From Yersinia massiliensis CCUG 53443 (GTDB lineage Bacteria; Pseudomonadota; Gammaproteobacteria; Enterobacterales; Enterobacteriaceae): a DNA stretch of 64,000 nucleotides. The translations under genes were made by a program, and so were the position numbers. Shown here in pieces: positions 671 to 60,951 of the stretch. Location: assembly GCF_000312485.1 (NCBI RefSeq), contig NZ_HE997651.1, positions 67,784-131,783 on the forward strand, in the 5' to 3' direction. The notes beneath the pieces are model-generated. The model did not search any database, was not told the DNA's origin, and worked only from the letters and a program-made list of their open reading frames with translations. Position 1 is the stretch's first letter, and the number at the start of each line of letters is the position of its first letter.

Positions 671-724
671 GTCACTAAATAATGATCTGTCACTCAATAA
701 TCGTTCGTCGGTAAGTAAAAGAAT
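671..724 (+). repeat. Three imperfect 18-bp tandem repeats
   Basis: The units are GTCACTAAATAATGATCT, GTCACTCAATAATCGTTC and a more degenerate GTCGGTAAGTAAAAGAAT. They lie in the 5' region of the UPF0261 gene, downstream of the two candidate operators. The rest of the 484-791 gap shows no gene. Confidence 0.65.
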
Positions 725-791
725 AAGCGTCCAAATAAAGTGAGCTGCTGACCATTTTTGCGACATTCCGCATTCATAGAAGGATGTTTAG

Positions 792-2009
792 ATGCCTCGT
801 CATATTTTTATCGCGACTACCACAGATACCAAAGGCGAAGAGCTGGCCTATGTCAGCGCATTGATTAAAGCCACAGGGTTAACGACCGTTACGGTTGATT
901 TATCGACGAAAGAAGGCATACGCGACGGTGGCGCGGATATCACGGCTGAGACGGTGGCAAGCTATCACCCAGAGGGGCGTCAGGCGGTATTTTGTGGTGA
1001 TAGAGGTCGGGCGATCAGTGCCATGGCGACCGCTTTCGAACGGTTCATTGCCAGCCGTGATGATATCGCCGCTCTTTTGGGATTGGGGGGCTCCGGCGGG
1101 ACGGCGCTGGTCACGCCGGCAATGCAAAGCTTACCTATCGGTATTCCTAAGCTAATGGTTTCAACCATGGCGTCCGGTGATGTTTCTGGTTACATCGGTG
1201 CCAGCGATATTGCCATGATGTATTCCGTAACTGACATCGCGGGGCTAAATCGTATCTCTCGGCGGGTATTGAGCAACGCCGCTCACCAAATTGCGGGCGC
1301 GGTTTATTTCGCCAAAGAAGAGTCGCCAGTCGAGGACAAACCGGCACTGGGCTTGACCATGTTCGGTGTGACCACTCCCTGTATTCAGGCGGTCAGTGCT
1401 GCATTATCAGCAGACTATGATTGTCTCGTTTTCCACGCGACAGGCAGCGGCGGCAAAGCCATGGAAAAACTGGCTGAAAGTGGCTTGCTGGCGGGCGCCC
1501 TTGATCTCACGACGACAGAAGTCTGCGACCTGTTATTTGATGGCGTATTGGCGTGTGGCCCAGATCGCTTCGATGCCATTGCCCATAGTGAGATTCCTTA
1601 CGTCGGGTCTTGCGGTGCGTTGGATATGGTTAACTTCGGTAGCCCAACCACCATTCCGGCTAAATATGCCGACCGCCTGTTCTATAAGCACAATGCGCAG
1701 GTCACGCTGATGCGCACCACCGAGCAAGAAAATATTCAAATGGCACGCTGGATTGGCGAGAAGCTAAATCGTTGCCAAGGAGAGGTACGCTTCTTAATCC
1801 CCGAAGGGGGGTTCTCTGCACTGGATGCACCGGGCCAAATTTTCTGGGATGAAAAGGCGCTGAATGCCTTTATCCATACGCTGGAAGAAACCGTCATTCA
1901 GACTGATAAACGCCGCTTGGTTCGTTATCCGTACAATATTAATGACCCTCAGTTCGCACAAGCAGCGGTAGAGAACTTTAAAGAAATTACGAAGAGCCCG
2001 TCCTTATAG
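792..2009 (+). CDS. UPF0261 (Tm-1-like ATP-binding domain) family protein
   Basis: This 405-residue protein belongs to the UPF0261 family, which corresponds to the N-terminal half of the tomato Tm-1 protein. Glycine-rich segments near residues 96-103 (GLGGSGGT) and 215-222 (FHATGSGGKAM) are probably nucleotide or phosphate loops. There is no signal peptide or membrane segment, so it should be cytosolic. The start is the ATG at 792, with GAAGG nine bases upstream. It is followed after 24 bp by a TIM-barrel protein matching the other half of Tm-1, so the two probably act together, perhaps as a complex. The bacterial function is not established. The family call is confident; no reaction can be stated. 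Confidence 0.85.
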   Translation: MPRHIFIATTTDTKGEELAYVSALIKATGLTTVTVDLSTKEGIRDGGADITAETVASYHPEGRQAVFCGDRGRAISAMATAFERFIASRDDIAALLGLGGSGGTALVTPAMQSLPIGIPKLMVSTMASGDVSGYIGASDIAMMYSVTDIAGLNRISRRVLSNAAHQIAGAVYFAKEESPVEDKPALGLTMFGVTTPCIQAVSAALSADYDCLVFHATGSGGKAMEKLAESGLLAGALDLTTTEVCDLLFDGVLACGPDRFDAIAHSEIPYVGSCGALDMVNFGSPTTIPAKYADRLFYKHNAQVTLMRTTEQENIQMARWIGEKLNRCQGEVRFLIPEGGFSALDAPGQIFWDEKALNAFIHTLEETVIQTDKRRLVRYPYNINDPQFAQAAVENFKEITKSPSL

Positions 2010-2033
2010 GGCCAGTTTAATGTGGAGAAGCAG

Positions 2034-58992: not shown

Positions 58993-59063
58993 CAGATTGC
59001 TGATATTTCTCTTAGGTGCTGAGCGTATGTTAACGCCTGACAAATTCCCTGGAGAGAATGCTC

Positions 59064-60875
59064 ATGCAACATGCGATTACCTTTGTTATCGCCTCCGCGT
59101 GTATCCTGACAATATGCTACCGCTTATACGGTATCTTTTTTGTTCGTAAGGTACTGCGAGTCGATGATACTGAAGTCACACCTTCCCACACCTTTGAAGA
59201 TGGTAAAGATTACGTCCCAACTAAGAAATGGGTGAACTTTGGCAGCCACTTTGCAGCAATTGCTGCCGCTGGCCCTTTGGTTGGCCCAGTACTTGCTGCG
59301 CAATATGGCTATTTACCCGGTTTCCTGTGGTTATTAATCGGGTGTGTTATCGGTGGTGCCGTTCACGATACGGTCGTGCTCTTTGCCTCGATGAGACATC
59401 AGGGAAAATCCCTGTCCGAAGTCGCTAAATCAGAACTCGGGCCAGTTGCGGGTTGGTGTACTGGCCTTGCAATGCTGTTCATCATCACCATTACCATGGC
59501 TGGATTATCAATGGTTGTGGTACATGCTCTGGAACGTAACCCTTGGGGGACGTTCGCGGTATTCATGACCATCCCTATCGCCATCTGCGTGGGGTTATGG
59601 GAACGCATGACCGGTAGCATGAAAGGGGCTTCTTATGTCGGTATCGCTGCCATCATGGTATGCGTATTTGTCGGCCCTTATATTGAAGGCACTTGGCTCG
59701 GCGAATGGTTAATGCTGAAAGCAGACACCGTTAGCATTATTTTGCCAATGTATGCTTTCTTTGCGACTGCGTTACCTGTTTGGATGTTATTGACTCCTCG
59801 TGGTTATCTTTCTAGTTTCATGAAGATTGGTGTTTTCGGCGCATTGATCGTTGGTGTTGTCTTTATTAACCCTGAAATCCAATTCCCTGCATTAACACAG
59901 TTTATTCATGGTGGCGGCCCTGTTTTAGCTGGCCCAGTTTGGCCGTTTATCTCGATTACCATTGCGTGTGGTGCTATTTCTGGTTTCCATGCCTTTATTG
60001 GGTCTGGTACGACACCAAAACAGATAGACAAATGGAGCGATATTTTACCTGTTGGTTTTGGTGCAATGCTGGCCGAATGTATGGTTGGGGTAATGGCCCT
60101 GATCGCGGCAACCTCTTTGCATCCGGCTGACTATTTTGCAATTAACTCTTCCGCTGAAGCTTGGAGCTTGCTTGGCATGGAAGTGGTTAACTTGCCGCAA
60201 TTGAGCCAAGAAATCGGCTTAGATCTGTATGGACGTACCGGCGGTGCTGTTACTTTAGCTGTCGGCATGACTGATATCTTCATCCGTGTACCTTGGTTCA
60301 GTAGCATGGCAGCTTACTTCTTCCAGTTTGTTGTTATGTTTGAAGCTGTCTTTATTTTGACAGCGGTTGACTCAGGCACTCGTGTTGCTCGCTACCTGCT
60401 GCAAGATTTCTTGGGCGATATTTGGGCACCATTAAAACGTACCGATTGGTTACCCGGCACTCTTGCATGCAGTGTTATTGCTTGTGCGCTCTGGGGCTAC
60501 CTCCTCAATTCTGGTGATATCAACTCTGTTTGGGCACTGTTCGGCGTATCTAATCAGTTAATGGCTTCTGTTGGCTTAATCATCGGCGCGACGATTATTC
60601 TGCGGTTGGCAACTAAGCGCATATACATGCTGACGTGTGTGATTCCTCTCGCTTATCTGTTTGTCACCGTAAACTATGCCGGTTACTGGATGATCACCCA
60701 CGTGTACTTCAATTCAGCGGCTAAAGGCTACAATCTGTTCAATGGCATCATCTCTATTATCATGATGACACTGGGCGTGATTATCCTGATATCCGCACTG
60801 AAAAAATGGCGTGAGTTGTGGATCCGCAGATCTGCTGAGATGGCTGGCAATAAAGTCGTGACAGCCAACGCCTAA
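59064..60875 (+). CDS. CstA-family transporter (short form)
   Basis: The 603-residue protein (605 if the ATG at 59058 is used) belongs to the carbon-starvation CstA family, whose E. coli members CstA and BtsT are peptide/pyruvate transporters of about 700 residues. It has some 16 hydrophobic helices. Family blocks are HFAAIAAAGPLVGPVLAAQY, GAVHDTVVLFASMRHQGKSL, SGFHAFIGSGTTPKQIDKWS, LTAVDSGTRVARYLLQDFLG and NSVWALFGVSNQLMASVGLI. The shorter size is typical of a different CstA subgroup. It sits in a cluster inserted between udp and rmuC. Pyruvate or peptide uptake is a guess from the family. Confidence 0.88.
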   Translation: MQHAITFVIASACILTICYRLYGIFFVRKVLRVDDTEVTPSHTFEDGKDYVPTKKWVNFGSHFAAIAAAGPLVGPVLAAQYGYLPGFLWLLIGCVIGGAVHDTVVLFASMRHQGKSLSEVAKSELGPVAGWCTGLAMLFIITITMAGLSMVVVHALERNPWGTFAVFMTIPIAICVGLWERMTGSMKGASYVGIAAIMVCVFVGPYIEGTWLGEWLMLKADTVSIILPMYAFFATALPVWMLLTPRGYLSSFMKIGVFGALIVGVVFINPEIQFPALTQFIHGGGPVLAGPVWPFISITIACGAISGFHAFIGSGTTPKQIDKWSDILPVGFGAMLAECMVGVMALIAATSLHPADYFAINSSAEAWSLLGMEVVNLPQLSQEIGLDLYGRTGGAVTLAVGMTDIFIRVPWFSSMAAYFFQFVVMFEAVFILTAVDSGTRVARYLLQDFLGDIWAPLKRTDWLPGTLACSVIACALWGYLLNSGDINSVWALFGVSNQLMASVGLIIGATIILRLATKRIYMLTCVIPLAYLFVTVNYAGYWMITHVYFNSAAKGYNLFNGIISIIMMTLGVIILISALKKWRELWIRRSAEMAGNKVVTANA

Positions 60876-60913
60876 TATTTCACATTCATTGCGTTAACCT
60901 GCATACCCTTCTT

Positions 60914-60951
60914 TTTTGAAGTCACAATGCAGTTTTGAAGTCGTAATACAG
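60914..60951 (+). repeat. 19-bp tandem duplication after the CstA-family gene
   Basis: TTTTGAAGTCACAATGCAG is followed directly by TTTTGAAGTCGTAATACAG, 16 of 19 bases identical, starting 38 bp after the stop codon. Confidence 0.8.

What the first reader, a model, noticed from the sequence alone, without database searches (positions are those of the whole stretch)
671..60951. Recurrent short (15-22 bp) imperfect tandem duplications in intergenic DNA
At least nine separate gaps carry two to four head-to-tail copies of unrelated short units: 671-724 (18 bp x3), 5509-5580 (18 x4), 11524-11583 (20-21 x3), 22414-22464 (17 x3), 27306-27347 (18 x2.5), 28294-28323 (15 x2), 33731-33766 (18 x2, decayed), 58900-58992 (22 x2 and 20 x2), 60914-60951 (19 x2). 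The units differ in sequence, so this is not one dispersed element. It looks like a process that keeps duplicating segments of about two helical turns, mostly next to stop or start codons. Yersinia pestis is known for variable tandem repeats used in strain typing, which fits, but the frequency and uniform size here deserve explanation.
Basis: partly seen in the sequence, partly recalled or inferred. Interest (0 to 1): 0.72.

Follow-up and report, generated by a model that had tools for sequence, protein, structure and literature searches.

The report
Yersinia's 15-22 base tandem duplications
Several Yersinia genomes keep copying short stretches of about 18 bases head to tail between genes, far more often than chance and mostly within a narrow size range, which hints at a copying error with a built-in ruler behind the repeats long used to fingerprint the plague bacillus.

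Summary
In ORF-free window DNA, tandem pairs of period 15-22 number 10 against 0.15 in shuffles. Over 367 kb of mostly intergenic Yersinia DNA the periods form one hump, 13 to 23, mode 18: 156 at 15-22 against 7.8 shuffled. E. coli (400 kb) and pooled other genomes show no such hump, only a small excess; one genome, G028, has a broader excess. Of ten repeats named, two are conserved regulatory-type pairs, one is an old shared pair, one is weak, and six are clear arrays whose form differs between lineages; five of these differ in copy number from a 95.8%-identical sister genome. Units are not dispersed. They are minisatellites of the kind used to type Y. pestis; the host is another Yersinia. 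My reading: a microduplication process with a 15-22 bp ruler, strong in several Yersinia and not seen in Y. ruckeri, makes the pair; slippage then changes the number. The ruler's enzyme is unknown; polB, xni and dinB are present.

The parts
671..701 (.). weak 18-bp duplication (1.7 copies) 5' of the gene at 792
   Evidence: self-shift score 10.5; the stretch is shorter or different in the 10 relatives, and G006 has a 21-bp array of its own there
5510..5574 (+). 18-bp array, 3.6 copies, beginning in the last codons and stop of corA
   Evidence: corA by NCBIfam; no such array in the 10 relatives; sister G034 has one more 18-bp copy
11524..11583 (+). 20/21/18-bp array made of the pldB start region; ATGs at 11525, 11545, 11566, 11584
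   Evidence: pldB (lysophospholipase L2) by NCBIfam; arrays of the same motif but other lengths in G004, G005, G017; no copy change against the sister was seen
22405..22465 (.). 17-bp array, 3.6 copies, 5' of tusA
   Evidence: tusA by NCBIfam; sister G034 has one more copy; 18-bp arrays in G005 and G006 at the same place
27306..27349 (+). 18-bp array, 2.4 copies, 5 bp after the stop codon of a DUF2500 gene
   Evidence: sister has one copy fewer; no array in the 10 relatives
28294..28323 (-). 15-bp pair across the rsmD start codon
   Evidence: core present in the 10 relatives (degenerate in G011), apparently more copies in G006, G008, G012: an old duplication; rsmD by NCBIfam
33731..33758 (+). 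10-base repeats 18 bp apart, 5' of a liv substrate-binding gene; conserved, regulatory type
   Evidence: both copies kept with at most one mismatch in 8 of 10 relatives, spacing 17-20; gene by NCBIfam
58900..58933 (+). 22-bp duplication between a phosphatase gene and the CstA-family gene
   Evidence: absent from the 10 relatives; sister has an extra 23-bp copy
58963..58992 (+). ACCGCTTA-N12-ACCGCTTA pair, BtsR (YehT)-site-like, upstream of a CstA-family (btsT-like) gene; not a recent duplication
   Evidence: conserved in 10 of 10 relatives; E. coli yjiY site printed in PMC4847170; CstA by Pfam
60914..60952 (+). 19-bp duplication, 2 copies, at the left end of what looks like a degenerate inverted-repeat element
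   Evidence: sister has one copy; the stretch is missing in 9 of 10 relatives, G008 has a similar-looking insertion

Best explanation
These are young minisatellites that differ between lineages. Step 1 (inferred): a copying error at work in several Yersinia duplicates 15-22 bases in place, whatever their sequence, wherever the result is tolerated, often including the last codons and stop of a gene. Step 2 (outcome shown, mechanism inferred): once two copies exist, strand slippage between them adds or removes whole units, so sister species differ by one or two copies. Step 3 (inferred from copy divergence): point mutations make the copies unequal, slippage stops and the array decays. The ruler most likely reflects how far a nascent strand end is displaced before it re-primes or is rejoined; this is not shown and its enzyme is not identified.
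For: Excess and narrow size: 156 arrays of period 15-22 against 7.8 shuffled in 367,182 bases scanned; 14-30 at each period from 15 to 22, 10 at 13, 8 at 14, 0-7 at every other period from 5 to 45 (orthologous arrays in related genomes are counted more than once there). At a stricter threshold (14), arrays at 15-22 and at all other periods: own genome 26 and 8 in 144.6 kb; 10 relatives 16 and 3 in 100.2 kb; E. coli 0 and 0 in 44.1 kb; eight loci of other Enterobacterales 1 and 2 in 22.6 kb; five genomes of other families 2 and 9 in 86.2 kb. Copy-number change: against sister G034 (33,371 intergenic bases aligned, 1,820 substitutions) there are 16 intergenic indels of 15-23 bp, 10 of them tandem copies (6 at score >=0.8, 4 at 0.65-0.8; the 99% chance level for lengths 16 and 18 is 0.69 and 0.67), against 0 of 5 at 10-14 bp and 0 of 2 at 24-30 bp. 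Five window arrays (5510, 22405, 27306, 58900, 60914) are among the changed ones. Units are local sequence: corA end, pldB start, rsmD start. Units not dispersed. Y. pestis VNTR table: 31 of 64 loci not wholly inside ORFs have units of 15-22, 6 have 10-14.
Against: No enzyme or gene explains the ruler; polB, xni and dinB are present in all 19 Yersinia searched. The density is uneven: at score >=12, per 100 kb, 86 in Y. similis, 53 in the window, 42 in the sister, 8-36 in eight other relatives, 0 in Y. ruckeri (11.2 kb); of 11 short named loci 4 have none even at score 10 (Y. aleksiciae, Y. pekkanenii, Y. nurmii, Y. ruckeri). Controls have a small excess too (threshold 10: 8 against 2.2 in five genomes of other families, 2 against 0.3 in eight loci of other Enterobacterales, 3 against 1.0 in E. 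coli), and G028 a broad one (5-9: 4 against 0.35; 10-14: 7 against 0.30; 15-22: 7 against 0.45). The Y. pestis table has a second mode at 7-8 bp that my scan of other Yersinia does not show. Births cannot be polarised from one sister genome. The E. coli indel comparison has only 365 intergenic substitutions, so 0 tandem changes against about 2 expected at the Yersinia rate is weak. In the second Yersinia pair, G004 against G017, 3 of 6 intergenic indels of 15-23 bp are tandem, but so are 2 of 13 at 10-14 and 1 of 4 at 24-30. The enrichment in 3'-3' gaps of the own genome (84.9 per 100 kb) is not seen in the relatives (28.0). Short tandem indels of 4-9 bp also occur (9 of 23 at >=0.8; at length 5 that score is within the 95% chance level).
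Confidence: 0.7

Rival explanations
1. Ordinary replication slippage between chance short direct repeats, as for bacterial VNTRs in general, with no special ruler; the size peak is a by-product of what survives or is detected.
For: Copy changes between sisters. Some sister sequences show short direct repeats at the unit ends: 8 bases at 27306 and about 3-5 bases in three own-genome arrays. Of 15 near-perfect arrays with at least one full extra copy, 5 extend 1-7 bases beyond whole copies.
Against: Slippage should favour short distances, yet periods 5-10 are near the shuffled level in Yersinia and 11-12 only a little above it, although the scan can see them; pooled other genomes have as many or more arrays at other periods. 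Of the same 15 arrays, 9 stop exactly at whole copies and 1 falls 2 bases short; for blunt ends I would expect about half to stop exactly (my estimate, not a call). Partial copies in the sister could also be remnants of contraction.
Confidence: 0.35
2. The arrays are functional: tandem binding sites, about two helical turns apart, kept by selection.
For: Two repeats fit: 58963 (10 of 10 relatives) and 33731 (8 of 10). In the gap upstream of ugpB, G006, G012 and G016 carry CTGTCA pairs about 22 bp apart, as a PhoB box would (motif recalled; ugpB).
Against: The other clear arrays are absent or differently built in relatives, have unrelated units, five of six change copy number between sisters, and several consist of coding ends. 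Mode 18, not 21.
Confidence: 0.1
3. Relics of a mobile or dispersed repeat family (ERIC-like, iteron-like, CRISPR-like).
For: The 60914 array lies in what looks like a degenerate inverted-repeat element, and relatives carry similar-looking (ERIC-like, by eye) insertions in some of the same gaps.
Against: None of the ten window units has more near matches elsewhere in 967 kb of the own genome than the best of eight shuffled units; each array has its own unit and no spacers.
Confidence: 0.05

Closest known systems
VNTR / MLVA loci of Yersinia pestis (88 loci listed in PMC3689786)
   Same: Head-to-tail units, 48 of 88 intergenic and 16 of 88 across a start or stop codon, copy-number variation, non-ORF units with a mode at 16-18 bp
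   Different: Described there as typing markers in one species; here the size limit is measured against shuffles and other genera and found in several other Yersinia. The published set was chosen for variability and has a second mode at 7-8 bp
Bacterial minisatellites in general
   Same: Birth, expansion, contraction and decay of short tandem arrays (general model recalled)
   Different: The pooled control genomes here show no comparable 15-22 peak; their few arrays spread over other periods
BtsR (YehT) direct-repeat operator, E. coli yjiY (btsT)
   Same: 58963-58992 matches the ACCGCTTA...ACC(G/A)CT arrangement upstream of a CstA-family gene
   Different: 12 bases between half-sites here against 13 in the E. 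coli sequence printed in PMC4847170; binding not tested
Small tandem duplications at breaks in animal cells (PMC8355091, start of abstract only)
   Same: Small in-place duplications arising at DNA breaks
   Different: Eukaryotic polymerase alpha-primase system; no counterpart shown here

Membership tests
Minisatellite / VNTR | two or more head-to-tail copies of a 10-100 bp unit, above chance | tested here: met
Minisatellite / VNTR | copy number varies between close relatives | tested here: met
   five window arrays differ from sister G034
Minisatellite / VNTR | copy number varies between strains of one species | not testable with these tools
   one genome per species is held for Yersinia
Y. 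pestis VNTR set | host is Y. pestis | tested here: not met
   79.8% identity to Y. similis over the region, with the kinship of Y. similis to Y. pestis recalled; Y. pestis itself was not compared
Conserved regulatory direct repeat | both copies kept in relatives | tested here: met
   58963 in 10 of 10 and 33731 in 8 of 10; not met for 5510, 27306, 58900, 60914
Dispersed repeat (ERIC, REP, iteron) | same unit at many places | tested here: not met
   (window units against 967 kb of the own genome, up to 3 mismatches)
CRISPR array | repeats separated by different spacers | tested here: not met
   copies abut in the clear arrays

The most novel reading that the evidence does not exclude
Several Yersinia carry a molecular activity with a fixed reach of about 18 bases (for example offset nicking with fill-in and rejoining, or re-priming of a nascent strand displaced by a set length) that makes in-place duplications needing little or no homology; the plague typing repeats are its best-known product.
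Probability: 0.3. Interest if true: 0.8.

Novelty: new variant of a known kind. Interest (0 to 1): 0.55.

Why it matters
VNTRs are a tool of plague typing; the sections I read of PMC3689786 describe their variation and selection, not why units have the size they have. A duplication spectrum limited mainly to 15-22 bp and strong in several Yersinia turns their origin into a testable question about DNA replication or repair, suggests where new markers arise (gene 3' ends), and warns that tandem repeats near promoters in Yersinia need a conservation check before they are called binding sites.

Tried and rejected
Hairpin-forming units as the cause: unit folding energy does not differ from shuffles (mean -0.047, sem 0.046; two-copy version -0.056, sem 0.141; 149 distinct arrays). 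Loss of three genes as the cause: polB, xni and dinB present in all 19 Yersinia searched; other genes were not tested. Coding frame: 69 of 156 arrays have periods 15, 18 or 21 (58.5 if the eight lengths were equal), so no strong frame bias. Dispersed family: rejected. Orientation of the gap (3'-3' against others): inconsistent between own genome and relatives. Recurrence of arrays in the same gaps across species (for example 11.5, 22.4, 38.06 kb) was seen but not tested against chance. Literature: searches; no listing showed a report of a 15-22 bp peak across the genus, but I read only PMC3689786 (outline with abstract, sections 6, 11, 12, passages) and passages of PMC5552118 and PMC4847170; other papers were seen as listings with abstract starts. 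Pourcel et al. 2004, recalled and tried by DOI, is not held. Dropped before counts: G028 is not in the pooled controls (given apart); identical array sequences were merged (156 to 149); the indel test counts intergenic events only (4 of 15-23 bp that my ORF calls place in coding, 3 of them tandem, are left out).
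Full report
What was given.

Check. Tandem Repeats Finder at its lowest threshold reports 24 rows, among them 5510-5579 (two overlapping rows), 11524-11572, 22405-22465, 27306-27342 and 60914-60952. In 8,079 ORF-free bases there are 10 pairs of period 15-22 against a mean of 0.15 in 20 dinucleotide shuffles. The window is richer than its genome: 40 other stretches have 44 in 119.9 kb against 3.1. 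ORFs were chosen by length without overlap, so gene starts are approximate and stops are firm.

Host. The window is part of contig 9 of a 5.05-Mb genome. Over this region the ten relatives are 76.9-84.1% identical, Y. similis 79.8% and Y. ruckeri 76.9% (names by matching loci). One genome, G034, is 98% identical over window 31900-33900 and 95.8% over 190.7 kb. So it is a Yersinia but, from the distance to Y. similis (whose kinship with Y. pestis I recall), not Y. pestis.

Size spectrum. The same scan of 367,182 bases (intergenic DNA with 15-base margins) from the window, 46 other stretches of the own genome, sister G034, ten relatives and nine further named Yersinia loci gives 156 arrays of period 15-22 against 7.8 expected; counts are 18, 20, 20, 30, 15, 18, 21 and 14 for 15 to 22, 10 at 13, 8 at 14, 7 at 23, and 0-7 at every other period from 5 to 45. 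Orthologous arrays in related genomes are not independent, so these counts describe a spectrum, not a number of events. Some entries, chiefly at 18-22, are 10-12 base repeats with a gap, not full duplications: of 49 arrays at least 93% identical, 34 have less than one full extra copy.

Controls. At threshold 14, period 15-22 against all other periods: own genome 26 and 8 (144.6 kb intergenic), ten relatives 16 and 3 (100.2 kb), E. coli K-12 0 and 0 (44.1 kb), eight loci of other Enterobacterales found with the rsmD query 1 and 2 (22.6 kb), genomes G019, G023, G024, G027 and G030 together 2 and 9 (86.2 kb); at threshold 10 the 15-22 counts are 61, 43, 3, 2 and 8 against 3.8, 1.8, 1.0, 0.3 and 2.2 shuffled. 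So controls have a small excess, at 7 to 9 per 100 kb against 42 to 43 in Yersinia. G028, left out of that pool, has an excess at 5-9, 10-14 and 15-22 alike (4, 7 and 7 against 0.35, 0.30 and 0.45), a broader spectrum than in Yersinia. A mixed set of mostly more distant proteobacteria (L075-L097) shows 8 against 2.9 at 15-22 and 11 against 2.6 at 5-9. Inside Yersinia, Y. similis is rich (11 at score 12 or more in 12.7 kb), eight other relatives have 1-4 each, and Y. ruckeri has none in 11.2 kb; four of eleven short named loci have none at score 10. In ORFs the 15-22 rate is low and alike in Yersinia and E. coli (5.4-7.0 and 5.5 per 100 kb).

What each array is. 5510: copies of the last codons and stop of corA; no such array in the ten relatives, several of which carry other insertions at this gap. 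11524: copies of the pldB start region, giving four ATGs; G004, G005 and G017 have arrays of the same motif with other lengths, G012 and G018 different arrays in the same gap, G015 and G011 a single copy. 22405: 17- and 18-bp arrays in the own genome, G005 and G006. 27306 and 58900: no array in the ten relatives. 60914: in 9 of 10 relatives the whole stretch is missing; it looks like a degenerate inverted-repeat element. 28294: a pair over the rsmD start codon shared by the relatives, degenerate in G011, apparently expanded in three. 33731 and 58963: conserved pairs; the second resembles the BtsR site of E. coli yjiY, with 12 instead of 13 bases between half-sites. Gene names are from NCBIfam and Pfam.

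Change over time. Against G034, intergenic indels by length (tandem at 0.65 or more in brackets): 4-9 bp 23 (10), 10-14 bp 5 (0), 15-23 bp 16 (10), 24-30 bp 2 (0), 31-48 bp 6 (2, both of two-unit size); 1,820 substitutions in 33,371 bases. For lengths near 5 the tandem score is not discriminating. Five window arrays are among the changed ones: G034 has one more copy at 5510, 22405 and 58900, the own genome one more at 27306 and 60914. The E. coli comparison (K-12 against four strains, one for each stretch; 365 substitutions) has 2 indels of 15-23 bp, neither tandem; it is too small to decide alone. G004 against G017 (743 substitutions) has 6 of 15-23 bp, 3 tandem, and 13 of 10-14 bp, 2 tandem.

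Ends and neighbours. Of 156 arrays, 47 touch or lie within 10 bp of a stop codon against 24.5 for random placement; for starts 16 against 21.1. The gap-type comparison is inconsistent. Of 15 near-perfect arrays with at least one full extra copy, 9 stop at whole copies, 5 extend 1-7 bases and 1 falls 2 short, which does not ask for homology at the ends; several sister single-copy states do show 3-8 matching bases there, which could be seeds or remnants. I count this as unresolved. Units do not fold better than shuffles, and none of the ten window units is found elsewhere in 967 kb more often than the best of eight shuffled units.

Known context. In the Y. pestis VNTR list (PMC3689786, Tables 1 and 2), 31 of the 64 loci not wholly inside ORFs have units of 15-22, 6 have 10-14, 20 have 6-9, 3 are longer than 22 and 4 shorter than 6; 16 of 88 overlap a start or stop codon. 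The same class of repeat thus appears in Y. pestis, with an additional mode at 7-8 that I do not see in the genomes scanned here.

Mechanism. Shown: local origin of the units, differences between lineages, copy-number change, size limit. Inferred: birth by an in-place microduplication with a reach of 15-22 bases, then slippage between copies, then decay. The ruler is the open point. Plain slippage between chance direct repeats would be expected to give shorter units too; functional selection explains only the conserved pairs. Loss of polB, xni or dinB is excluded; other genes were not tested.

Verdict. A real, quantifiable peculiarity of several Yersinia, of a known kind (minisatellites), with a size limit that I did not find described in what I could search and that lacks an explanation.

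Noticed in passing
22818-22924 (+): Rfam match to the Yersinia sRNA Ysr224 (89.1 bits) directly after tusA, the only match at gathering threshold in the window.
   Followed up: no
45202-45235, and the same gap upstream of ugpB in relatives (about 45.27-45.29 kb): G006, G012 and G016 have CTGTCA pairs about 22 bp apart there, as expected of a PhoB box (motif recalled); the window's own scored pair in this gap is a different sequence.
   Followed up: partly
60900-61030: Degenerate inverted-repeat (ERIC-like, by eye) element after the CstA-family gene; G006 (Y. similis) has several such units head to tail in the same gap, and relatives have similar-looking insertions in the corA and DUF2500 gaps.
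   Followed up: no
11525-11584: The array multiplies the pldB start codon: ATGs at 11545, 11566 and 11584 share one frame, so the array may lengthen the protein N-terminus.
   Followed up: partly
28706-28754 and 29158-29192: 18-bp repeats inside the ftsY ORF found by Tandem Repeats Finder.
   Followed up: no
41911-44920 (-): CS1-type fimbrial genes (Fimbrial_CS1 subunit and a protein with a TcfC domain).
   Followed up: no
G015 at the corA 3' gap (aligned to 5509): A run of a 6-base unit (GAAGTT) in place of the 18-bp array: the same gap carries a different kind of repeat in another species.
   Followed up: no
G006 43956-43992, and G004, G008, G017 at window about 38060: The 3' end of one gene seems to have been duplicated repeatedly, with different lengths (19 and 16 bp) in different species.
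   Followed up: partly
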